Source: Thermoleophilaceae bacterium
Lineage (GTDB): Bacteria > Actinomycetota > Thermoleophilia > Solirubrobacterales > Thermoleophilaceae
Assembly: GCA_030447875.1 (NCBI GenBank)
Contig: JAUJOA010000002.1
Coordinates: 124,001-188,000, forward strand
Length of the DNA: 64,000 nt
Direction of reading: 5' to 3'
Part shown: one piece after another, positions 20,384 to 58,018 of the stretch
Layout of the letters: every line of letters begins with the position of its first letter
Position numbering within the stretch: position 1 is the stretch's first letter
Notes under the pieces: generated by a model
Seen by the model: only the letters and a program-made list of their open reading frames with translations
What the model was told of the DNA's origin: nothing
The model's database searches: none
Position numbers and translations under genes: made by a program

Positions 20384-22345
20384 TCAGCGTCCCGATCGTC
20401 CGGCGTCACCGGCGTACGGGACAGTGGGCCTTAGGCGATTGGCTCGCTTAGTTGCGTCGAGCGCGCCCTGCACATCGCCGGTGCCGGCGTCGAGGCTCGC
20501 GGCCACGAACCACACCCGCCAGTCATCCGGAGCCCGGGCGATCGCCTCCGCCATCGCCTGCTCCGCTCCGGGCAGGTCGCCTCGCAGCTGTTGGATCTGG
20601 GCGACCTGGAGATAGGGAGCGGCGGCCCAGGGCTGCAGCGCTCCTGCCTCGCGCGCGTCCTGCGCCGCCCCCGCCAGGTCCCCGCGGTCGACCGCGTCGC
20701 GACTGGCGTTCAGCTTCAGCTCCGTGAGGATGCCGGCGATTCCCCCGAGGATCGCCACCCACCCGACGAGCAGCGTCGCCACGCCTACGCCGAATCGGCT
20801 GCGGCCGCCCGCCGCGCGAGGGTTGAAGGCGGGGCCCGTCAACAGCGCGGCTCCCACGATCACCGGCCCGAAGACGGCGGGTATCTCCCACATCCAGTCC
20901 TGTGCCGCGGCCACCCCACCCACGGCCACGACCGCCAGGGCCGCCCCGAGCGCCGCCCTGTCGGTCCCCCCTCGATGCGTTCGTATGGCGGTGACCGCGA
21001 CGATCGCGAGAAAGGCGAGGATCAGAAGCAGTCCGAGTGGGCCCAGCTCCGCGAGCGTCTCGACGAACAGCGAATGAGCGTCGCGCACCGTTGCCGGAAG
21101 CGACCCGTGCTCGCCCCACCAGGCCTCGTAGCCGCCGGCGCCGATCCCTGTCAGGGGTCGGCTGGCGAACGCGCTCAGCCCCGCCTCCCAGTACTGGAAG
21201 CGGCCGTTGCCCGTGCTGCTCGCCAGTCGGCTGGTGGCGAGCTCGGCGCCGCCGCTGGGAGCCTGCGAGGGGGCGGCGAAGCCGCTCAGCCACTCAGCCG
21301 GGCTCGCGGCGATGATCGCGAGGATCGCCGCGACGGCGGCCACGGCCACGGCGGCGCGACGCGCGCCCCGCGACGGCCGCGCGGCCAGCCGCGCTCCCTG
21401 AAGCCGAGAGTCGGAAAGAAGGCGGAGCACCGCGACGACCGCCACCGTGAGGACCGTCAGGGCGAGCAGGATGTGGCCCTCCTGCCTGGCCGCGGCCGTG
21501 TCGGCCCCCGCCAGGAACGATGGGCTCGTGGCCGCTCGGGTCACGAGGACGGCCGCGCCGAGCATCCCGAGGCCGAGTCCGCCGGCGACCGTCAAGCGCC
21601 TCGGCCCGATGGCGACCATGACGACGACGCCCGCTGCCAGCGCGGCGAGACCACCTCGTGATGAAGTCAAGAAGATGTCGAGGGCCGGGATCGGTATCAG
21701 CCCCGCGGCGATCGAGCGTGTCCAGCGGCTCCGCGCGGAAGCGGCCAGCCAGCCGAGGAGAACGATCGCCATCGCGGCACAGGCCGCCACGGCGTTCCAG
21801 TAGCCGAGCGGGAAGCTGGCCAGCGCCTCGGGCTCCCGGATCGTCTCGGCGACCTCGCTCGTCGGAAGGATCGAGGGCTCGAGCCGGCTGCCGAGCGCCA
21901 GGGCGGCGACCATCGTAAGCCCGAAAGCGAGGCCCAGAAGCCAAGGCCGTGGCCGTCCAGATCCTGAGGCAAGGACAACCGCCACGAACAGGCCAAGGTA
22001 GGTGAGCACGCGGACGATCTCAGTGAACGCACGGCCGTCGTCGCTTGCCCACGTCATGGACAGCGCCGTGAGCCCGGCGAGCCCGGCCAGGCAGGCGCCT
22101 GCGGTGAGCGCGGGGCGCGGGACGGGAGCTCGCGGCCAGACCCCTACGATCAGGCCGAGGATGACGGCGACCCATAGTAGGATCGCCACACCCGCGCGTA
22201 CCTCCGCGTAGTAGCCGCCGTTCAGCAGGGCTACTGCGAGAACCGCAGCCGCAACGATCAGCGCGTGCGCGTGTTCTCCTCGACTAAGGTTGGAAGCCTC
22301 ACTAGGAAGGTGACTGGGTTGGCGACGTTCCACGACGGTACGCAC
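20384..22345 (-). CDS. O-antigen ligase/polymerase-type membrane protein with TPR-like tail (copy 1)
   Basis: 653 residues if started at GTG 22345, seven bases after a TATGCT box; the ATG at 22357 is possible. The much longer frame to 22876 is antisense to another gene and reads as shadow. About a dozen membrane spans are visible. Wzy/WaaL landmarks are SFPLGYWNAVA in the middle and the large periplasmic loop GIGAGGYEAWWGE followed by RDAHSLFVETLAELG. The last 110 residues are helical with a TPR-like pattern (AVDRGDLAGAAQDAREAG, LQVAQIQQLRGDLPGAEQAM). The protein would polymerise repeat units or join the chain to an acceptor. Its start lies close to the divergent gene at 22319. A second protein of the same layout is at 29846. 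Confidence 0.87.
   Translation of the reverse strand: MRTVVERRQPSHLPSEASNLSRGEHAHALIVAAAVLAVALLNGGYYAEVRAGVAILLWVAVILGLIVGVWPRAPVPRPALTAGACLAGLAGLTALSMTWASDDGRAFTEIVRVLTYLGLFVAVVLASGSGRPRPWLLGLAFGLTMVAALALGSRLEPSILPTSEVAETIREPEALASFPLGYWNAVAACAAMAIVLLGWLAASARSRWTRSIAAGLIPIPALDIFLTSSRGGLAALAAGVVVMVAIGPRRLTVAGGLGLGMLGAAVLVTRAATSPSFLAGADTAAARQEGHILLALTVLTVAVVAVLRLLSDSRLQGARLAARPSRGARRAAVAVAAVAAILAIIAASPAEWLSGFAAPSQAPSGGAELATSRLASSTGNGRFQYWEAGLSAFASRPLTGIGAGGYEAWWGEHGSLPATVRDAHSLFVETLAELGPLGLLLILAFLAIVAVTAIRTHRGGTDRAALGAALAVVAVGGVAAAQDWMWEIPAVFGPVIVGAALLTGPAFNPRAAGGRSRFGVGVATLLVGWVAILGGIAGILTELKLNASRDAVDRGDLAGAAQDAREAGALQPWAAAPYLQVAQIQQLRGDLPGAEQAMAEAIARAPDDWRVWFVAASLDAGTGDVQGALDATKRANRLRPTVPYAGDAGRSGR
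22285..22290 (+). promoter_or_regulatory. Putative -10 box for the 22319 gene
   Basis: TAAGGT lies 34 bases upstream of the TTG start at 22319, leaving room for a short leader carrying the AGGAAGG ribosome site at 22304-22310. It lies inside the 5' end of the divergent ligase gene. Confidence 0.35.
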
Positions 22346-26855: not shown

Positions 26856-28151
26856 CTAGGCGCCCGCCGCCACCAGCGCCTGGCGGTACACGTCCTTGAG
26901 GATCTCGCGCTCGACGTGCCAGTCGAGCGTGGCCGCCGCCCGTGCCGCCGCTTCTCGGTACAGCGGTTGCCTGTCGGCGCGTGTGACCTCGTCGATGCCG
27001 GTCGCGATGGCCTCCACGTCCTGCGGATCGACCGTGACGCCGAGTCCGTGCTCGTTCAAGAAACGGGTGATCATCGGGAGGTCGCTCGCCACGACGGGCA
27101 CGCCGGCCACGGCGTACTCGAAGAGCTTGTTGGGAAGGACGAGGCGATGGCTGAGGCAGGTGGGCTGGAACAGCGCGAGACCCACCTGGGCGTTCGCAAG
27201 CGCGCCCACCACCTCCGTCGGCGGCACGGGGCCTGGGAAGTGGACGCGCTCGCCGACGTCGAGCGACGCCGCGAGCCCCTCGAGCTCCGCGCGGTAGTCC
27301 GCGGCCACCGGGCCGATCAGGCGCAGGTGAACGCGTTCCACCAGCGCCAGCGCGCGGATCGACTCCTCGAGGCCGCGGTTGCGAAGCAGCCCGCCAACGT
27401 AGACCGCGACCGGTGGGCCGTCGAAGGTGGGTCCGTTCCCGTTCAGGGCCGGCGTGGCCTCGGGCACGATCTCCGGGATGTTTCGAACCACGACGGGCTC
27501 GGGGATCCGGTAGCGCTCGGCCATCACCTCCGCGTGGGCGGGACTCGTCATGACCACTCGGTGGGCAATGCGCACGAACAGCGCCTCGCAGAGCAGGAGC
27601 CACCAGCGCGGCTCGGGGCGCAGGTTGCGGTCGGGCCAGAGCTCGTGTGAGTCATAGACCACGAAGCTCCCGACCAGAAGGCGGGCCGCGACGCCGATCC
27701 ACATGGTGTTGTAGTCGTTGCAGTGCACGAGCTGCGGCTTGAGCGCTCGGACGACGCCGATCGCGCGCCGGTAGTACGCGAGCGTGGTCGTGAGGCGCAC
27801 GAGCCGCGTCACCAGCCGGGGCGGTGAGGGTGCGCCGGAGGCCGCGCCCGCGTCCCTCCGCGGGGCAGGGGCCGAGCCGTCTTCCCGTGACCTGCCCTCC
27901 CGCGCTCGCAGCCGCCGGTAGACCGAGCGCTCGAGGACGGATGACGGTCCGAGGCGGCGCACTCGGATCTCCCCGATGGTCTGGCGGCGTCGGTCCTCGG
28001 TGGGGGAGACGACCGCCAGCACTGTGCTCTCGAACCCGAGCGACTGGAGGGCTCGAGCGGCTCGGAGCACTCGCGCATCGTGCTCGAAGCTGTTTCGCAC
28101 GACCAGTAACGCGCGGGGGAGCGGCGGGCCGCCTGCGGGATCGTCGGTCAC
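26856..28151 (-). CDS. Glycosyltransferase family 4 (tandem copy A)
   Basis: 431 residues from ATG 28151. The GT-B fold is shown by ALLVVRNSFEHDARVLRAA at the start, QLVHCNDYNTMW, and VVYDSHELWPDR (acceptor domain). VAVYVGGLLRNRGLEE, HRLVLPNKLFEYAVAGVPVV (donor-site E region) and GLGVTVDPQD follow. A variable, charged linker of about 35 residues (residues 85-120) differs from its neighbour copy B at 28162. The central parts of the two genes are almost identical, which points to tandem duplication. The two enzymes probably use related donors. It is followed at five bases by the GT28-like gene. Confidence 0.9.
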   Translation of the reverse strand: MTDDPAGGPPLPRALLVVRNSFEHDARVLRAARALQSLGFESTVLAVVSPTEDRRRQTIGEIRVRRLGPSSVLERSVYRRLRAREGRSREDGSAPAPRRDAGAASGAPSPPRLVTRLVRLTTTLAYYRRAIGVVRALKPQLVHCNDYNTMWIGVAARLLVGSFVVYDSHELWPDRNLRPEPRWWLLLCEALFVRIAHRVVMTSPAHAEVMAERYRIPEPVVVRNIPEIVPEATPALNGNGPTFDGPPVAVYVGGLLRNRGLEESIRALALVERVHLRLIGPVAADYRAELEGLAASLDVGERVHFPGPVPPTEVVGALANAQVGLALFQPTCLSHRLVLPNKLFEYAVAGVPVVASDLPMITRFLNEHGLGVTVDPQDVEAIATGIDEVTRADRQPLYREAAARAAATLDWHVEREILKDVYRQALVAAGA

Positions 28152-29121
28152 CGCGCGGAGTCTAGATCGACGTGTCTGGAGCCCGGCCGAGGGCCGCGGT
28201 GCGGCCGGCGCGTGCCATGCCCTCGCGGTAGACGCCCGCGAGGCTCTCGAGCTCCCGTTTGCCGTCGAGCGCCTCCGCTGCGCGCGCCGCGGCCTCTCGA
28301 TGGCGCTCGTTGCGCGCGGGCTCCAGGAGCTGCTGGAGCTTGATCGCGATGGCGTCGACGTCGTCCGGGTCGACGGTGGCGCCGAGGCCGTAGCCGTCGA
28401 TGAACTTCGCGATCATCGGGAGATCGCTCCCGAGGATCGGCAGGCCGGCGAGCGTGTACTCGAACAGCTTGTTCGGAAGCGTCAGGCGGTAGCTCAGGTC
28501 CGCCGGCTGGATCAAAGCGAGGCCGGCGTCGGCACCCACCAGCGCCTCGAGCACCTCGGCAGGCGCTACGGGCGGCGCGAACTCCACCCGGTCTTCAATT
28601 CGCAGCCGGCCGACCAGCTCCTCGAGCGAGCGCTTGTAGTCGGGCAGCGACGGCCCGAGCAGTCGCAGGCGCACCCCCGGAGCCATGGCGACCGCCTTGA
28701 TCGCCGGCTCGAGGCCGCGATTGGGCTGAAGGCCTCCCACGTAGATCGCGACGGGCGAGCCGTCCGGACGCGTGGGTCGCGGCGCGGGAGGCACCTCAAG
28801 GCCCGCCTCGGGGATGTTTCGGATCACGAGCGGCTCGGGCACGCGATAGCGCCGGGACATCACCTCGGCATACGCCGGGCTCGTGGTGACGACGCGGTCG
28901 GCGATGCGCACGAACAGCGCCTCGCAGAGCAGGAGCCACCATCGCGGCTCGGGGCGCAGGTTGCGGTCGGGCCAGAGCTCGTGCGAGTCGTAGATCACGA
29001 CGCTGCCCGCGAGAAGGCGGGCCGCGACGCCGATCCACATCGTGTTGTAGTCGTTGCAGTGCACGAGCTGCGGCTTGAGCGCTCGGACGACGCCGATCGC
29101 GCGGCGGTAGTACGCGAGCGT
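27571..29121. repeat. Direct repeat of 215 bp inside two tandem GT4 genes (27571-27785 and 28907-29121)
   Basis: The two segments align without gaps at an offset of 1336 bases with 11 differences by my count (about 95% identity). They encode the block around QLVHCNDYNTMW to ALFVRIA. The flanking parts of the two genes are clearly more diverged, so this is either the conserved core of a duplication or a patch kept alike by gene conversion. Confidence 0.85.
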
Positions 29122-29502
29122 CGCGGCCCAGCGCAGAAGGCGGCGAGCCCCTCCGCGCCCGGCGGGCAGGCCCCCTCGGGCGCCCTCGGAGGCGCCGCGC
29201 TGCGGCGCCTCCGCATCCTGTCGCCGGCTCCCGGGACTCAGGAAGCTGATCCGGCGGTACACGGCCCAGGCCAGGCGCGAGGACGGCGCGATGCGCCTTA
29301 TCGGGATGCCGCGGTGATCGCTCGCCTCGCGGCGCTCGGTCCACGAGACCACGCCCAGGATCTCGGTGCGGAAGCCGGTGTCTCTCGAAGTGCGGGCCGC
29401 CCTCAGCACCCGAGAGTCGTGGTCCACGGCGTTGCGGACGATCACCAGGGCACTCGGCGGCCCCGGCGGCCGCCCGCCGCGCGTTCCTCGCTGGGAGCTC
29501 AT
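28162..29502 (-). CDS. Glycosyltransferase family 4 (tandem copy B)
   Basis: 446 residues from ATG 29502 (MSSQRGTRGG); the frame to 29604 is open but I prefer the internal ATG because the extra part is low in complexity. The motifs mirror copy A: ALVIVRNAVDHDSRVLRAA, VHCNDYNTMWIG, VIYDSHELWPDRN, VAIYVGGLQPNRGLE, YRLTLPNKLFEYTLAGLPIL and GLGATVDPDDVD. The linker near residues 90-125 is rich in R, G and A. The enzyme would be a retaining sugar transferase of the same subgroup as copy A. Gene order, with copy B first and copy A ten bases downstream, indicates one transcript. The region upstream (29503-29700) has no gene; the shared 57-bp block for the divergent ligase begins at 29701. Confidence 0.88.
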   Translation of the reverse strand: MSSQRGTRGGRPPGPPSALVIVRNAVDHDSRVLRAARTSRDTGFRTEILGVVSWTERREASDHRGIPIRRIAPSSRLAWAVYRRISFLSPGSRRQDAEAPQRGASEGARGGLPAGRGGARRLLRWAATLAYYRRAIGVVRALKPQLVHCNDYNTMWIGVAARLLAGSVVIYDSHELWPDRNLRPEPRWWLLLCEALFVRIADRVVTTSPAYAEVMSRRYRVPEPLVIRNIPEAGLEVPPAPRPTRPDGSPVAIYVGGLQPNRGLEPAIKAVAMAPGVRLRLLGPSLPDYKRSLEELVGRLRIEDRVEFAPPVAPAEVLEALVGADAGLALIQPADLSYRLTLPNKLFEYTLAGLPILGSDLPMIAKFIDGYGLGATVDPDDVDAIAIKLQQLLEPARNERHREAAARAAEALDGKRELESLAGVYREGMARAGRTAALGRAPDTSI

Positions 29503-29700
29503 GGCGCTGCCTCGGAGCTCACCTGCGCGTCGAGATGCTCCCGCAGCGTACGGCGCTTCGGCCGCGGACAGCGGGCCGACGATCCTCTGCCAGCCGGTGG
29601 GCATTTAGGCCAGCCAGATCTGCTCCACGCGGAAGTTGTACCGGAAGCCCGGGGGCCGTCCGTCCGCCGGTCGGTGCCGACGGGTTCCTTGCCCGGTCCC

Positions 29701-29757
29701 CTGGCTACTATTTCGTGGTCATTCCTCAACGCTTCCACCCTCCTGTCTGAAGCGTGC
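29701..29757 (+). promoter_or_regulatory. Shared 57-bp upstream block, copy 1
   Basis: Aligns without gaps to 44576-44632 with 41 of 57 bases identical. The first 25 bases are well kept (TGGCTAC, ATT, CG, GGT, ATTCC), the middle diverges, and the last 13 (GTCTGAAGCGTGC) are identical and include the GTG start of a short reading frame. TACTAT at 29706-29711 is a plausible -10 box with TGGC just before it, which would leave a leader of about 35 bases. It stands before the second ligase gene; its twin stands before the flippase gene. Confidence 0.65.
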
Positions 29758-29849
29758 TACGGCTGTTCCTCGACTGGCTCCTCCGCGGTCTGCCGCAGCT
29801 CGGATCGTGGCTGCGGCGCGCGCTAGCAGCCGCATCGCAGACGCCGTGA
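29754..29849 (+). CDS. 31-residue leader-like peptide before the ligase gene
   Basis: A GTG-started frame of 31 codons reads VLRLFLDWLLRGLPQL then GSWLRRALAAASQTP, ending TGA. The stop overlaps the likely ligase start at 29846 in GTGA. The peptide matches the N-terminus of the flippase at 44629 at 10 of its first 24 positions (M/V1, R3, F5, W8, L13, G17, W19, R21, R22, L24), and the same upstream block precedes both. It looks like an amphipathic helix with paired arginines. It may be a real small protein, a leader that couples translation of the ligase, or the ligase's own N-terminus separated by a one-base slip. Confidence 0.55.
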   Translation: MLRLFLDWLLRGLPQLGSWLRRALAAASQTP

Positions 29850-31885
29850 GCAGCGGCCCCCAGGCCGCGGCAGGCACCGGCGCGGTCGCGGTGCCGCCGG
29901 CCACGGACGCGTTGGAGCCCCGCCTCTCGCCGGCCGCCCTGCCGGCGGCGCTCGTGGTGCTTCTGCTGCTGATCGCGACGGTCTACGACGGCGGGTTCGC
30001 GATCAGGCAGTGGTCCCCGCCGGCTCTGTTCGTGCTCGTGATGCTCGCGGCGATGTTCCTCGGCGGCGGCGCGCGGCGCGTGAGCCGTCCGATCGGCGTG
30101 GCGCTCGTCGCGATCTGGGCGTTCGCCGGCTGGACGCTCCTCTCCATCACCTGGTCGGAGTCCGTTGCCCGCGCCTGGGCTGGCGGCAACCGCACGGTCT
30201 TCTACGCCGCTCTGGTCACGGTCGCGCTCGTCGCGATTCCCGGCCCGCGGGAGAGGCGCACGATCGGCGCGCTCCTGATCGGAGGGGTGACGCTGCTCGG
30301 CGCCGTCACGCTCGTGCGGATGCACCTCCACGGCAGCGAGCTGTTCGTCGGTGGAAGGCTCGACACCCCGGTGGGCTATCGCAACGCCACGGCCTGCCTG
30401 TTCGCGCTGGCCTTCTGGCCGCTGATCGGGGCAGCGGTCACCCGCGGTCGCAATCCGACGCTGCGCGCGGGGGGCTTCGCGGCTGCCGTGCTCATGCTCG
30501 GCCTTGCGTTCGTCACCCAGTCGCGCGGCGCGCTGCTGGCGCTCGTCGTCGGCGGGATGGTCGCGCTGGCGCTCGGAACCGAGCGGATCCGGCGGGCGTT
30601 CCTCGCGCTCATCGCCATCGCCGGCGTGGCCGTTCTCTCCGGCTCGCTCCTGAGGGCCTATCGTGCGTTCGAGTTCGGCAACGGGACCGTGACCGTCGGG
30701 GACATCGCCACCGTCACCAACGCTCTCACGTTTCTGGTGGTCGACGCCTTCATCGTCGGGCTGCTGCTCGCCCTGCTCGACGGGGGCCTGCGTGCCTCGG
30801 TGCAGAACCTGCGGCGAGCCCGGCGGATCGCCGTGGTCGGCCTGCTCGTCGGAACGGTCGGGTTGATCGCGGGTGCCGTGGCCGCCGCCGGCAACCCGGT
30901 CAAGTTCGTGGACACGAAGCTCGACGAGTTCCAGAAGATCGAGAGCCGCACCTCGGAGGTCACGCGGCTTGTGACGACCGGTGGCCAGCGCTACGACCTC
31001 TGGCGCGTGGCGCTCGACGAGTTCTCGGCGCACCCGATCCGCGGAGTGGGGGAGGGCGGGTACGCGGCCGGCTACTACCTCGAGCGAGACACCGACCGCA
31101 ACCTCAGCGATCCCCACAGCCTGCCACTGCGACTCCTGGCCGAGACGGGCTTGGTGGGAGCGTTCCTCTTCGCCGCTTTCCTCGTCGCCCTCGCGGTCGC
31201 GATCCTCTCGGGGGTGAGGGGGGCGACCCTCTCCACGCGCCACGCGGTGGCGGGGCTCACCGCCGCCGGCGTGGTCGTGCTCACCCAGGCGCTGGTCGAT
31301 TGGATCTGGCTGGTTCCCGGGGTCACGGGGATCGGGCTGTTCTGCCTCGCCCTCGCGGCGGGCATCGTCTCGGAGCCTCGGCCGCCCGTGGCGCCCGCCG
31401 GCCGAGCGCGCGTCGCCCTTACCAGGGTGGTGCCCGCGATCGCGCTGCTGGCGGCGGCGGGCAGCGTGCTGATCGTCTTTCTGGCCGACTTCCACACGCG
31501 TGAGGCTCGCGCCGCGGACTCGCCCGAGGGGGCCCTCGCCGCCGCCCGCGCGGCCGAGGGGCTCAACCCCGCGGCCCTCGCGCCGCGCTACCTGCAGGCC
31601 TCGGCGCTCGAGCGGCTCGGAGAGCTCGACGCGGCGCGGGCTGAGCTGCTGGAGGCACTCGGACGGGAGCCCCGCAACTCCGCGACGCTCGGGCTGCTCG
31701 GCGACCTCGAGGTGCGTGCCGGCGATCTGCGCCAGGCCAGGAGCTACTATGCCGACGCGCTCGCGCTGAACCCGCGCGACTTCGGCATTCGGGAGCTCAA
31801 GCGGAAGACGGCGGCCCGGGCGCGCTCGGCCCCGCCAGCGCCCGCAGCAGCTCCCACCAGCCGTCCGTCATCTTCTCGCGGCTGA
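29846..31885 (+). CDS. O-antigen ligase/polymerase-type membrane protein with TPR-like tail (copy 2)
   Basis: 679 residues from GTG 29846, chosen because it overlaps the stop of the leader peptide (GTGA). The frame is open back to 29636 but without a better start. About twelve membrane spans run from residue 30 to 540. Landmarks are LDTPVGYRNATACLFALAF and QSRGALLALVVGG, then the big external loop GGQRYDLWRVALDEFSAHP, GVGEGGYAAGYYLERDTD and SDPHSLPLRLLAETG, as in Wzy/WaaL proteins. The final 110 residues hold TPR-like helices (AAARAAEGLNPAALAPRYLQ, LGELDAARAELLEALGREP, LRQARSYYADALALNPRD). The 3' end overlaps the convergent GT4 gene by 89 bases, the longest overlap in the window. Confidence 0.88.
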   Translation: MSSGPQAAAGTGAVAVPPATDALEPRLSPAALPAALVVLLLLIATVYDGGFAIRQWSPPALFVLVMLAAMFLGGGARRVSRPIGVALVAIWAFAGWTLLSITWSESVARAWAGGNRTVFYAALVTVALVAIPGPRERRTIGALLIGGVTLLGAVTLVRMHLHGSELFVGGRLDTPVGYRNATACLFALAFWPLIGAAVTRGRNPTLRAGGFAAAVLMLGLAFVTQSRGALLALVVGGMVALALGTERIRRAFLALIAIAGVAVLSGSLLRAYRAFEFGNGTVTVGDIATVTNALTFLVVDAFIVGLLLALLDGGLRASVQNLRRARRIAVVGLLVGTVGLIAGAVAAAGNPVKFVDTKLDEFQKIESRTSEVTRLVTTGGQRYDLWRVALDEFSAHPIRGVGEGGYAAGYYLERDTDRNLSDPHSLPLRLLAETGLVGAFLFAAFLVALAVAILSGVRGATLSTRHAVAGLTAAGVVVLTQALVDWIWLVPGVTGIGLFCLALAAGIVSEPRPPVAPAGRARVALTRVVPAIALLAAAGSVLIVFLADFHTREARAADSPEGALAAARAAEGLNPAALAPRYLQASALERLGELDAARAELLEALGREPRNSATLGLLGDLEVRAGDLRQARSYYADALALNPRDFGIRELKRKTAARARSAPPAPAAAPTSRPSSSRG

Positions 31886-37372: not shown

Positions 37373-37482
37373 GCAGGTCCAGGCTCACGGCGGACATCCT
37401 CGCCCCGGCTATCCTTCGGCCGCTGATGGCGGTCCTCCGACACGAGTCAAGCGCCGTCGGCCGCCGGCTCGACGCCTGAGCG

Positions 37483-38805
37483 ATGAACAGCGATCCGGCA
37501 AGGGCGCTCCCGGGGCGCTGGGGGCTCCACCGCGCTCCGGCCCTCCCGGCGTGGCGCCCGGCGCTCGCGGGGGCGGCATTGGCGGGTTTGCTGGCGGCCG
37601 GGCTCGCCATAGCGGCCGGCGCGGCGGCCGGACCCTCGTTCCTCGTCCTGTTCGGGCGCGAGAAGCTCTTTGCCGATTGGCTGGCCGGTCCGCTCGCCGG
37701 GCTTGCCCCCGGGCTCTCCAAGGCCGACTTCAGCGCCCTCGTCCTCGCGATGTGCGCCGGCTACGCGACCGTCCTGGCGCTGGCGCGGGCGATTCGCCCA
37801 CGGCTGGCGATCGGCGCGATCGTCGCGCTCCACCTGATCTTCCTGGTCGCACCCCCGCTCCTCACCACGGACCCGTTCTTCTACATCACCACTGCGCGCA
37901 TCGGAACGGTCTACGACCTCAACCCGTACGCCGATGGCGCCAGGTCGATCCCCGACGATGTCGTCAACCCTTTTATCCGGCACAAGGACCCGAGCCCCTA
38001 CGGGCCGCTCTTCACGGTCATCTCCTACCCGCTCGCCGCGATCAACTTCCATGCGGCCATGTGGCTGATCAAGCTCGGTGCCGCCCTCGCGAGCCTCGGC
38101 TGCGTCGCCCTGGTGTGGCGCGGCGCGCGGCTGCGCGGTCGAGACCCCGTCTTCTCCGCGATGTTCGTCGGTCTCAACCCCGTGCTGCTCGTCTGGGCGG
38201 TGGGGGGAGGGCACAACGACCTGCTTCTCACCCTTCTCGTGCTCGTTGGCGTGGAGCGGATTCTCGCCGGCCGCGACGGCTCCGGCGGGGCAGCCCTGGC
38301 CGGCGCCTTCGCCGTGAAGGCGCCGAGCGCTCTCATCCTTCCCTTTGCCCTGCTCGGCGCCCGGCAGGGCCGCAGGCTGCTAGCCGCGACGGCGGGCGCC
38401 GGCGCGGGCTTGCTCGCCGCGGTGACGATCGTGCTCGGTCCGGACGCCCTCCTTCACTACCCGAGCGCGGTCGCGAACCAGTCGGGCTACGTCTCGCGCC
38501 GGAGCGTCCCCACCTACGCCGGACAGCTGGCGGGGCTGGGCGGAGCCACCGGCGGCATACGCCTGATCGCCTCGGTCGCGCTGCTCGCGGTGGTCGTCGC
38601 TCTCCTCGTCCGGACATGGCGCGGCGCGGATTGGATCAGCTCGGCCGGCTGGGCGACGCTCGCCCTCCTGGTGACGTTGACGTGGCTGGTGCCCTGGTAC
38701 ATCGTCTGGATCCTGCCGCTCGCAGCGCTCGCGCTTAGCCATCGGCTCAAGCTAGCGGCGCTCGCCATGACCGCCTTCATGGTGATCACGCTGCTCTTCG
38801 ACTAG
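37483..38805 (+). CDS. GT-C-type membrane mannosyltransferase-like protein
   Basis: 440 residues with about ten to eleven membrane spans. The first external loop has LTTDPFFYITTARIG (D130), the acidic site used by polyprenol-phosphate-sugar-dependent GT-C enzymes, followed by NPYADGARSIPDD and KDPSPYGPLFTVISYPLA. This pattern is that of the MptB/GT87 alpha-mannosyltransferases of actinobacteria. It would add mannose or a related sugar from a polyprenyl-phosphate donor outside the membrane; the DPM1-like gene at 58159 could make such a donor. ATG 37483 gives a short basic N-terminus before the first span. The 3' end overlaps the convergent asparagine-synthetase-like gene by 20 bases. Confidence 0.85.
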   Translation: MNSDPARALPGRWGLHRAPALPAWRPALAGAALAGLLAAGLAIAAGAAAGPSFLVLFGREKLFADWLAGPLAGLAPGLSKADFSALVLAMCAGYATVLALARAIRPRLAIGAIVALHLIFLVAPPLLTTDPFFYITTARIGTVYDLNPYADGARSIPDDVVNPFIRHKDPSPYGPLFTVISYPLAAINFHAAMWLIKLGAALASLGCVALVWRGARLRGRDPVFSAMFVGLNPVLLVWAVGGGHNDLLLTLLVLVGVERILAGRDGSGGAALAGAFAVKAPSALILPFALLGARQGRRLLAATAGAGAGLLAAVTIVLGPDALLHYPSAVANQSGYVSRRSVPTYAGQLAGLGGATGGIRLIASVALLAVVVALLVRTWRGADWISSAGWATLALLVTLTWLVPWYIVWILPLAALALSHRLKLAALAMTAFMVITLLFD

Positions 38806-44456: not shown

Positions 44457-44575
44457 GCGATGCGGCGGACGCCGGTACGGCTCCGGGACCGGCGTGAGCT
44501 TCGCGAGCAGGGCCGGACTAGCGCCCCCGGCGGGCCGCTGACGGCCCCGCCGACCACGCCGCGCCGGCCGCGCCC

Positions 44576-44632
44576 GTGGCTACCATTCCGGGGTGATTCC
44601 CGAGCCCTGCCCATTTTCGGTCTGAAGCGTGC
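44576..44632 (+). promoter_or_regulatory. Shared 57-bp upstream block, copy 2
   Basis: Gapless partner of 29701-29757 (41 of 57 identical, last 13 identical). TACCAT at 44581-44586 takes the place of TACTAT as a possible -10 box. The block ends in the GTG start of the flippase gene at 44629. Confidence 0.65.
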
Positions 44633-46650
44633 GCCGTCCGTTTTTCCAATGGGTGGAAGGCCAGTTGCGGCGGTTCGGCGAGTGGATCCGCCGCATGCTC
44701 GGTCGTCAGGTCGCGGACCGCGGCGACCGCCGTAGGCGCAGGAAGCGCAAGCCGCCGCCCACGGCGATGAGCACCTACGGCACACGCGTTGGCCACCACG
44801 CCGGCATCTACGGCGTGGGCAACGTCGGGCAGATCCTCGTGGCGCTCGTCTCCGTCGCGGTGCTCACCCGCTTCCTTCCACCGGCGGAGTTCGGGAAGTA
44901 CCACATCTTCGTCGCGTTCGCCTCGCTGCTGACGCTCCTCTACAGCCTGCCGACGCAGCGCGGGATCATGCGCTGGGTCTTCGGCTCCGGGGGAGACGAC
45001 GACGAGGACGACGACGAGGACGACGACGAGTCCTCGGTCGAGGCGCCCGAGGGCGAGAAGCGCTTGGCGCTCGGAACCGGCATCGCCTTCATGGCCTTGC
45101 TCGGCGCGGCCGGTTCCGTCGTCGTGTGGCTCCTCGCGCCGGTGCTCGTCAGCCTCGTGTCCGGCGACGGCTCGGACGCTCGGATCGTCGTCTACGCGGC
45201 GATCGCCGCGGCCTTTCTCACGCTCTGGCAGGTCGCCGCCGCCGTGCCGCGCCGCGAGCGTCGTCCGAAGGCCTTCGTGTTCCTCCACTTGTCACGTCCG
45301 GTCTTCGTGTTGCTGGGAACGGTCCCTCTGGTGGTGCTCGAGCCGAGCGTCGAGAACGCCGTCCTCGGGATGGCGCTCGGCAGCGCCGTCGCCGCGATCG
45401 TCTCGCTGCTGCTGACGCGTCACAGCTTCCGCCCGGCATTTCGACTCCGTGACGTAAAGAGCATCTTTCGCCTCGCCGCGCCGTTCATCCCCCTGAACGC
45501 TTCCTACTGGGTGATCGGTCACGCCGGCGTCTTCATTCTGGGCGCTCACTCCGTGAGCGCGGTCGGGTTCTATCGCGTCGCCTCAAGCGTCGCGACGCTG
45601 GCCTATCACCCGGTATCCGCGTTTCTCCGCGCATCCGGGCCGCTTCGCAAGGATCCGATCGGTGGCGCGGTCAAGGCCGAGCGCGGGAAGGTCGGCGCTG
45701 GAGCGCTCGTGGCGACTTACTTCGCCCACGCGGCCGCCGGCATCCTGCTCGCCTTCGCCCTCGGCGCCGAGGTCCTCGTTCGGATCGCTCCGCCGGCCTA
45801 CGAGTCCGCCGCGCCGCTGGTGCCGCTGCTGGGGCTGGGCGCCGTGATGCAGGGCGGCGTGCGCATAGTCCGGCGCAGCACGAACTTCAAGAAGAAGCGG
45901 AGGTTCTACATCCAGTCGATCACGCTCGGCGGCGTGTTCTTCGTCGGGCTCGGCTTTGCCCTGGTCCCGTCGCTCGGCGCCTACGGGCTCGGGATCGCCC
46001 TGATCCTGACGTTCCTCGCCGTGCAGGTCGCGATGCTCGTCCGCGCCCAGCGGGGGCCCACGCCCACGCCGTACGACCTGCCGCGAATTGCGGCGGGGCT
46101 CGGGATAGCGGCTGGCTGCTACGCGGCCGGGAGACTCGGCGCGGACCTGCTCGAGCCCGCCGCGCTGGTCATCGAGCTGGCGGCGATCGTCGCGTACCCC
46201 GTGCTGCTCGTGGTGACCGGCGTCGTGTCCAGCGACCATGTCCACCGGCTGCGGCGTATCGGCGCCGCGGCGATCCCGGGGCGCTCGCCCGCCGCCAACG
46301 GCCGCGTCGACCTGAGCGGGATGGACGACGCGCACCACGCGGTGCTCGAGCTGCTCGTCAGGCACCGCCAGCCGGTGGTGGACGTGGCGGTCCTCATCGG
46401 CACTCCAAAGGAGGCGGTGGCACGGCACTTCGTCGCGGCGCTTCGGGAGGTGGGTGGAGTCGGAGCGCCGAGGGAGGGTGACGCGCGCATCGGCGCCTAC
46501 CTGCTCGGCGCGGGGTCGATTGCCGATCGCGACGCCATCTGGCGCAAGCTGCTCTCCGACGACATCGTGGATCCGATGGACACCGATGCGCTAAAGCTGA
46601 CGCTGGAGCGCCTGCGCCGGGCACCGGCGACAGCATGGGAGACGCGCTGA
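44629..46650 (+). CDS. Wzx-type polysaccharide flippase with basic leader, acidic insert and C-terminal soluble domain
   Basis: 673 residues from GTG 44629. The core (about 48-540) has some twelve to fourteen membrane spans and the opening GHHAGIYGVGNVGQILVAL and TRFLPPAEFGKYHIFVAF of MATE-like polysaccharide flippases, which move lipid-linked repeat units across the membrane. Three additions are odd. The first is an N-terminal 47-residue basic segment whose first 24 residues resemble the peptide at 29754. The second is a run of D and E at 123-134 after the third span. The third is a C-terminal soluble domain of about 120 residues (MDDAHHAVLELLVRHRQPVV, PKEAVARHFVAALREVGGVG) that looks winged-helix-like. 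An internal ATG at 44767 would skip the basic segment. Confidence 0.85.
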   Translation: MRRPFFQWVEGQLRRFGEWIRRMLGRQVADRGDRRRRRKRKPPPTAMSTYGTRVGHHAGIYGVGNVGQILVALVSVAVLTRFLPPAEFGKYHIFVAFASLLTLLYSLPTQRGIMRWVFGSGGDDDEDDDEDDDESSVEAPEGEKRLALGTGIAFMALLGAAGSVVVWLLAPVLVSLVSGDGSDARIVVYAAIAAAFLTLWQVAAAVPRRERRPKAFVFLHLSRPVFVLLGTVPLVVLEPSVENAVLGMALGSAVAAIVSLLLTRHSFRPAFRLRDVKSIFRLAAPFIPLNASYWVIGHAGVFILGAHSVSAVGFYRVASSVATLAYHPVSAFLRASGPLRKDPIGGAVKAERGKVGAGALVATYFAHAAAGILLAFALGAEVLVRIAPPAYESAAPLVPLLGLGAVMQGGVRIVRRSTNFKKKRRFYIQSITLGGVFFVGLGFALVPSLGAYGLGIALILTFLAVQVAMLVRAQRGPTPTPYDLPRIAAGLGIAAGCYAAGRLGADLLEPAALVIELAAIVAYPVLLVVTGVVSSDHVHRLRRIGAAAIPGRSPAANGRVDLSGMDDAHHAVLELLVRHRQPVVDVAVLIGTPKEAVARHFVAALREVGGVGAPREGDARIGAYLLGAGSIADRDAIWRKLLSDDIVDPMDTDALKLTLERLRRAPATAWETR

Positions 46651-57106: not shown

Positions 57107-58018
57107 CTAGGTCGAGCGCTGGGCGCTCGGTGCCGGACCACGGGCGATGACCAGCATCCGGTCGCGGAAATCGGGCGCCCAGAGGCGGTCGGCAACCCCG
57201 GCCGCACCGGTCGCGGCTACCAGCGCGTCGGCGGCCGTGCGCGAGTAGCCGCCGATGCGGTCGAGGTAGTAGCGCACGGTGAAGGCCTTCGGCGCGGTGG
57301 CCAGGTAGAGGGGCTGGAAGCCGTGTCGCTCGAGCAGCGTCCGGAGGCTCCCACGCGTGAAGTACTGGACGTGCGTGGGAATGACCGACCACCATCGAGA
57401 ACCCATCGCGCGGGCGAGACGGCTGCCGGCGTCCGGCAGCACGAGCGCCACGACCCCCGACGGCGACAGCAGCGTGGCGAGCCGTTCGAGCGCGTCGCCG
57501 GGGTGGGGAAGATGCTCGATCACGTCGCCGAGGACGATCGCGTCGAAGCGGCGGTCGTCGAGCGCCTCGTCGTCTAGGTCGCCGCTCACCACGTCGAGCC
57601 CGAGGTGGTCACGCGCGTACGCCGAGGCGAACGCGCTCGGCTCGACGCCGAGCGTGTCCCAGCCGCGCCTGTCCGCCTCCGCGAGCAGGAAGCCGACCCA
57701 GCAGCCCACGTCGAGCAGCGCGCCGCGCTCCACGTAGCGCTCGATCCGCTCCAGCGTTCGTCGCGCGGTCTCCCGCTCGCCCGCTTCCTCCTCGACGTAC
57801 GCCTCTGATTTCGCCTCGGCGTAGGCCTCGCTCAGCTCAGAGTCGATTGGAAGCCGCTCTAGCTGCATGTGCCCGCATCTGGGGCAGCGCACGATGTCCG
57901 AGAGCGCCGTGCCGAAGCGGTCGGTCGTGGGGATCAGGCCGTCGGGACCGGCGTCGCCCGCGACGGCGAGGTGTGGCTCGAGTCCGGATGAGCCGCAGGT
58001 GGAGCAGAAGTCCGCCAC
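57107..58018 (-). CDS. SAM-dependent methyltransferase with N-terminal zinc ribbon
   Basis: 303 residues. The first 55 hold two CxxC pairs, CSTC (5-8) and CPRC (45-48), forming a probable zinc ribbon. The class I methyltransferase then has LLDVGCWVGFLLAEA (motif I), TLGVEPSAFA, VVLGDVIEHLPHPGDALE-like sequence and TLLSPSGVVALVLPD. HVQYFTRGSLRTLLERHGF is common in the methyltransferase-12/23 members of surface-polysaccharide loci, where they act on nucleotide-linked sugars or lipid carriers. It lies alone on the minus strand, divergent from the DPM1-like gene across 140 bases. Confidence 0.88.
   Translation of the reverse strand: MADFCSTCGSSGLEPHLAVAGDAGPDGLIPTTDRFGTALSDIVRCPRCGHMQLERLPIDSELSEAYAEAKSEAYVEEEAGERETARRTLERIERYVERGALLDVGCWVGFLLAEADRRGWDTLGVEPSAFASAYARDHLGLDVVSGDLDDEALDDRRFDAIVLGDVIEHLPHPGDALERLATLLSPSGVVALVLPDAGSRLARAMGSRWWSVIPTHVQYFTRGSLRTLLERHGFQPLYLATAPKAFTVRYYLDRIGGYSRTAADALVAATGAAGVADRLWAPDFRDRMLVIARGPAPSAQRST

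What the first reader, a model, noticed from the sequence alone, without database searches (positions are those of the whole stretch)
29701..29849. A 57-bp upstream block plus a short N-terminal peptide is shared by a ligase gene and the flippase gene
29701-29757 and 44576-44632 align without a single gap, 41 of 57 identical, and the last 13 bases including the GTG are the same. The peptides that follow also match: 10 of the first 24 residues are identical, with pattern R3, F5, W8, L13, G17, W19, R21, R22, L24. In one case the peptide is a free 31-residue frame whose stop overlaps the ligase start (GTGA). In the other it is the N-terminus of the flippase. The pair could be a mobile or duplicated control cassette that coordinates a polymerase/ligase with its flippase, or a targeting helix placed on both machines. 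The identity covers non-coding and coding bases alike, so it is not just protein conservation.
Basis: partly seen in the sequence, partly recalled or inferred. Interest (0 to 1): 0.78.

Follow-up and report, generated by a model that had tools for sequence, protein, structure and literature searches.

The report
Duplicated promoter-leader before ligase and flippase
In one uncultured actinobacterium, the same short stretch of DNA (a promoter plus the start of a small helical peptide) sits in front of two partner genes for cell-surface sugar assembly, most likely copied when the operon that once held both genes broke apart, so that both stay switched on together.

Summary
29701-29757 and 44576-44632 match 41/57 without gaps; the next best match in the whole 1.7-Mb genome is 33/57. 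The shared segment is longer than reported: 29693-29824 vs 44568-44699, 85/132 identical. It begins at a -10 element (TACYAT after GGC) of the kind that marks leaderless promoters in this genome, and runs into the first ~24 codons. It is the second-best match among non-paralogous, non-coding upstream pairs (1,269 regions compared).

The block was not found in 232 genomes of the order or 399 of the class (176 shared). In the nearest relative (G011) sulfotransferase-sulfotransferase-flippase-ligase form one tight operon without the peptide. In the window that operon is broken: ligase and flippase each stand at a new divergent junction, each with a copy of the block. Best reading: a duplicated promoter/5'-leader that keeps both genes co-expressed.

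The peptide may be real: both copies encode an unusually amphipathic cationic helix despite 45% nucleotide divergence, but codon-level evidence for translation is weak. Mobile cassette, riboswitch, attenuator and -1 fusion are not supported. Coupled small ORFs on leaderless transcripts are known in actinobacteria, so this is a variant of a known kind.

The parts
29693..29824 (+). Copy 1 of the duplicated promoter-leader segment (upstream of the ligase)
   Evidence: Ungapped diagonal, 85/132 identical to 44568-44699
44568..44699 (+). Copy 2 of the duplicated promoter-leader segment (upstream of and into the flippase frame)
   Evidence: As above; only these two places in the genome
29706..29711 (+). 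-10 element TACTAT, preceded by TGGC (copy 1)
   Evidence: GCTANNNT is 7.5 times denser between genes than in them, and ATG/GTG peaks 6-9 nt after it
44581..44586 (+). -10 element TACCAT, preceded by TGGC (copy 2)
   Evidence: As above
29715..29750 (+). Possible mini-ORF VVIPQRFHPPV*; its GTG is only 3 nt after the -10, and the usual leaderless position holds GTC
   Evidence: Sequence; weak
44593..44625 (+). Possible leaderless mini-ORF VIPEPCPFSV*, GTG 6 nt after the -10; stop TGA, 3 nt before the next GTG
   Evidence: Sequence; position fits the genome-wide leaderless peak; listed
29754..29849 (+). Free 31-codon ORF VLRLFLDWLLRGLPQLGSWLRRALAAASQTP*, amphipathic; stop overlaps the ligase start as GTGA
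44629..44766 (+). N-terminal extension of the flippase frame: amphipathic helix VRRPFFQWVEGQLRRFGEWIRRML plus basic linker RRRRRKRK
29846..31885 (+). O-antigen ligase (Wzy_C) with C-terminal TPR; an alternative GTG start lies at 29807
   Evidence: Pfam PF04932 E 3.7e-17, TPR; orthologues 43-59% identical
44629..46650 (+). Wzx-type flippase (Polysacc_synt_3)
   Evidence: Pfam PF13440 E 2.5e-12; orthologue in G011 starts MSALNEFGSRVGRHAG, matching window MSTYGTRVGHHAG at 44767

Best explanation
A ~130-bp promoter plus 5'-leader segment was duplicated within the surface-polysaccharide cluster, and its two copies now drive the ligase and the flippase. In the ancestor these genes were cotranscribed (sulfotransferase-sulfotransferase-flippase-ligase, as in G011). 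When the operon was rearranged in this lineage, both genes lost their promoter and both now stand behind the same one, at newly formed divergent junctions, so they remain co-expressed. Shown: the homology, its limits, its uniqueness, the operon in the relative and the broken order in the window. Inferred: transcription from the TACYAT -10 element, co-expression, and the direction and mechanism of copying. The start of the transcript probably also encodes a short cationic amphipathic helix, free and translationally coupled before the ligase, fused to the N terminus of the flippase. It would lie at the membrane interface, and at the least carries ribosomes into the main gene.
For: Homology far above the genome background. 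It starts at a -10 element of the genome's common leaderless type. Absent from the order and class samples. G011 has a GT4 gene divergent from sulfotransferase-sulfotransferase-flippase-ligase on one strand with junctions of about 30 nt or less, and no peptide. A sulfotransferase directly precedes the flippase in G038, G035 and G032 too, by reading the translations. Upstream regions of ligase and flippase in G058, G115, G190 and G201 do not resemble each other. Duplication is active in the cluster: tandem glycosyltransferases and tandem sulfotransferases. Both encoded helices have hydrophobic moments (0.59 and 0.67) reached by only 0.3-0.9% and 0% of 1,500 random 31-codon frames, and are retained against randomly placed substitutions with P 0.0008 and 0.026.
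Against: No transcript data, no -35 similarity between the copies, and no consensus sigma-70 match. No genome of the same genus was available, so age and order of events rest on family- and order-level relatives. The coding test on identical residues and synonymous changes is not significant (P 0.15 and 0.12), and no codon-position bias was found. Direct adjacency of ligase and flippase is clear in G011 and G051 only.
Confidence: 0.6

Rival explanations
1. The conserved thing is the peptide: an amphipathic, cationic, Trp-containing helix that docks both the ligase and the flippase to the same membrane site or partner, supplied in trans before the ligase and in cis on the flippase. The promoter was duplicated along with it.
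For: Amphipathic moments extreme against random frames, pointing the same way (36 and 23 degrees), and substitutions placed so as to spare the hydrophobic face. AlphaFold2 on the 46-residue flippase extension gives one helix 4-39, pLDDT 93 in residues 11-20, single sequence only. The frame has a coding-like codon score, the other frames do not.
Against: No relative of the flippase or ligase has such a helix, and Pfam, NCBIfam and PDB chains hold no match. Codon test P 0.12-0.15. The order-wide profile search gave only marginal hits.
Confidence: 0.2
2. A translational device: leaderless initiation on a 10-11 codon mini-ORF, termination at the shared TGA, reinitiation at the GTG three bases on, and for the ligase a second coupled step at GTGA.
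For: Leaderless starts are common in this genome; -4 overlaps are the commonest gene junction (163 of 988) and the commonest mini-ORF to gene spacing (12). Precedents: coupled leaderless small ORFs in mycobacteria (PMC4633059) and leader genes in Actinobacteria (PMC4833913).
Against: In the ligase copy the expected leaderless codon is GTC, and the nearby GTG lies only 3 nt from the -10. The mini-ORF codon score is negative in both copies and its alignment shows no coding signal.
Confidence: 0.15
3. A cis-acting RNA or operator element (riboswitch, attenuator, or regulator site at GTCTGAAGCGTGC) is what is conserved.
For: 13 identical bases around the TGA, and spacing kept without indels.
Against: No Rfam match; no shared base-pairing: the hairpins in the peptide region are out of register by 2 nt and break each other's pairs; no terminator; the exact 12-mer GTCTGAAGCGTG is not found upstream of any other gene.
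Confidence: 0.1
4. A mobile repeat (MITE-like or insertion remnant).
For: Two copies with sharp edges.
Against: Only two copies in 1.7 Mb, no inverted-repeat ends, none in relatives.
Confidence: 0.03

Closest known systems
Leaderless transcripts with small ORFs coupled to the downstream gene by RTGA (mycobacteria; PMC4633059)
   Same: Small ORF of under 50 codons at the 5' end, stop overlapping the next start as GTGA, -10 directly upstream, host in the same phylum
   Different: The ligase copy lacks a clean RTG at the expected transcript start, the coupled ORF lies about 36 nt downstream of it, and in the sister copy the same frame is fused to the main protein; two unrelated genes share it by descent
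Bacterial leader genes acting by ribosome reinitiation (PMC4833913)
   Same: Short frame just before the main gene with a short stop-to-start distance
   Different: Spacing here is 3 nt and -4, while the paper's peak for Actinobacteria is 10-11 bp
Promoter duplication or capture after operon rearrangement (general knowledge, no paper checked)
   Same: Orphaned genes acquire a copy of a promoter that already works in the locus
   Different: The copy includes coding codons, and both copies sit on functional partners of one pathway
Wzx/Wzy-type glycan assembly clusters
   Same: Flippase, Wzy_C ligase, initiating sugar transferase, glycosyltransferases
   Different: A shared N-terminal peptide and promoter were not seen in the relatives examined

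Membership tests
Leaderless transcript | RTG at the transcript start, 6-9 nt after a -10 element | tested here: inconclusive
   Flippase copy: GTG 44593 at 6 nt, met. Ligase copy: GTC there, GTG at 3 nt, not met. True 5' ends unknown
Coupled small ORF (RTGA) | Small ORF stop overlaps the start of the next gene as RTGA | tested here: met
   GTGA 29846-29849; but the ligase start itself is uncertain (29807 or 29846)
Coupled small ORF (RTGA) | Small ORF is translated | not testable with these tools
   Needs ribosome profiling; codon evidence weak
Attenuator leader peptide | Run of regulatory codons and a terminator or alternative hairpin | tested here: not met
   No codon run by reading, no terminator, no shared RNA structure
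Riboswitch or other Rfam element | Match to a covariance model | tested here: not met
MITE or mobile cassette | Several copies with terminal inverted repeats | tested here: not met
   Two copies, no terminal inverted repeats
O-antigen ligase / Wzy_C | Wzy_C domain above the curated cut-off | tested here: met
   62.9 bits vs cut-off 31.7
Wzx-type flippase | Polysacc_synt domain above cut-off | tested here: met
   47.1 bits vs cut-off 23

The most novel reading that the evidence does not exclude
One amphipathic helix serves as a common address tag for two partner machines: a free coupled microprotein for the ligase and an N-terminal fusion on the flippase, so that ligase and flippase gather at one membrane site, with promoter and tag spread together as one small cassette.
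Probability: 0.1. Interest if true: 0.65.

Novelty: new variant of a known kind. Interest (0 to 1): 0.38.

Why it matters
It shows a way in which two genes of one pathway could stay co-regulated after their operon breaks: copying the promoter together with the first codons. It also gives a small candidate microprotein or helix whose effect on flippase and ligase partners can be tested directly.

Tried and rejected
A peptide-region match in G014 (E 1.3e-5) looked like conservation but lies inside a membrane-protein frame of a cytochrome-oxidase-like cluster: chance. Marginal profile hits in the order (E 0.002-0.05 per genome) were not followed: 30 of 232 genomes had hits at E 0.05, against about 12 expected at face value, all far weaker than the window copies. 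A shared RNA structure was tested and rejected. Two further mini-ORFs with a 3-nt spacing in the window (37426 +, 58096 -) are suggestive but too few to use. The first genome-contig scan with the flippase found nothing; the second, with a ligase alignment, gave seven named relatives, none from the window's genus as far as shown. Exact-codon constraint was tested and is weak. Two literature searches for promoter duplication in polysaccharide loci gave nothing directly relevant.

Full report
Setting. The window lies in a 1.71-Mb, 38-contig genome (77% complete by the tool's figure), 70% G+C. Its named relatives are Solirubrobacterales / Thermoleophilaceae metagenome bins. The region is a surface-polysaccharide cluster: glycosyltransferases, an initiating sugar transferase, sulfotransferases, an aminotransferase, a Wzy_C ligase with TPR (29846-31885) and a Wzx-type flippase (44629-46650).

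The 57-bp match is 41/57 with 13 identical bases at the end. Against the complete genome sequence the next best ungapped match is 32/57 for one copy and 33/57 for the other. The maximal ungapped segment is 29693-29824 vs 44568-44699, 85 of 132; identity in 25-nt bins falls to background on either side. Among 1,269 upstream regions compared all against all, this pair scores 38 with E 1.7e-11; after setting aside paralogous genes and matches lying in other predicted genes it ranks second. So it is a true duplication, not chance.

What the segment is. It begins at TGGCTACYATT. In this genome GCTANNNT is 7.5 times denser between predicted genes than inside them, and ATG or GTG codons pile up 6-9 nt after it. 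Around 185 of 965 predicted starts have a TANNNT ending 6-10 nt upstream. So this is the common leaderless-type -10 of the organism, and the segment is promoter plus transcript start. There is no similarity upstream of it. Inside lies a possible mini-ORF ending at the shared TGA; in the flippase copy its GTG sits at the leaderless position, in the ligase copy that place is GTC.

Is the peptide real? For: both copies encode a cationic amphipathic helix. The 18-residue hydrophobic moments, 0.59 and 0.67, are reached by 0.3-0.9% and 0% of 1,500 random 31-codon frames in each of three samples; the other frames of the block give 0.23-0.34 or hold a stop. If the 35 substitutions are placed at random, the moment of the other copy is reached with P 0.0008 or 0.026, while random letters in the observed columns keep it; that is, the changes avoid the hydrophobic face. 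Against: identical residues and synonymous changes are not in excess (P 0.15, 0.12), and no relative has the helix. The GTGA overlap is expected in about a quarter of such cases (inference: one of two other frames, purine before TGA in about half). Flippase homologues do carry basic N-terminal tails like the RRRRRKRK of the window, so the flippase frame probably starts upstream of ATG 44767, but a start at ATG 44695 would exclude the helix.

Where it came from. Three further relatives have a sulfotransferase directly before the flippase on the same strand (by reading). In the window the ligase directly faces the GT4 pair, and the flippase faces the inverted sulfotransferase pair 15 kb away. 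Both genes thus stand behind new junctions, and both junctions hold the block. The block is absent from 232 genomes of the order at up to 3 mismatches in 21 fixed positions, apart from three hits of three mismatches each that look like chance (the control pattern gave two). It is also absent from 399 genomes of the class at up to 2 mismatches; 176 genomes are common to both sets. In four relatives with both genes the two upstream regions do not resemble each other. The simplest account is duplication of one promoter-leader within the cluster when the operon broke. Which copy is the source cannot be told.

Comparison with the known. Leaderless transcripts that open with small ORFs coupled by RTGA to the next gene are common in mycobacteria (PMC4633059), and leader genes close to structural genes are common in Actinobacteria (PMC4833913). 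The present case uses the same parts but differs in that one copy is free and the other fused, and that two non-homologous partner genes share it by descent. Attenuator, riboswitch and mobile-element readings failed their tests.

Limits. No transcript or protein data, no same-genus genome, and a genome about a quarter of which may be missing, so further copies cannot be ruled out. Many small tests were run on one pair of sequences, so the amphipathicity P values should be read as suggestive.

Noticed in passing
27471-27806 and 28807-29142: The two tandem GT4 genes are 58% identical as proteins, yet this 336-bp patch is 87% identical in DNA (291/336) while a neighbouring 544-bp stretch is 65%: looks like recent gene conversion.
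   Followed up: partly
37426-37482 (+) and about 58096-58022 (-): Two more candidate leaderless mini-ORFs whose TGA lies 3 nt before a start codon (a GT87 gene at 37483 and a gene at 57107-58018). With the flippase they are the only 3-nt cases found in the genome, all in this cluster.
   Followed up: partly
G000 contigs C5, C8, C21, C30, intergenic (for example 5' of C8:24059, C5:123486, C21:5775): A dispersed intergenic repeat built of (CTGTCAA)n units, such as GTTGAACTGTCAACTGTCAACTGTCAACTG, in at least six places.
   Followed up: no
L216 (CAJCHW010000195.1): A contig titled 'Chlamydiae bacterium' carries a ligase 43% identical to the window's; a contig of the same number and length (C195, 11,723 bases) belongs to G201, a genome of this order, so the record title looks wrong or the bin mixed.
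   Followed up: no
20384-22189 (-): A protein 30% identical over 587 residues to the ligase: a second ligase-like gene in the same cluster.
   Followed up: no
genome-wide (G000): Strong leaderless signature: TANNNT ends 6-10 nt before about 185 of 965 predicted starts, and -4 overlaps make 163 of 988 same-strand junctions.
   Followed up: partly
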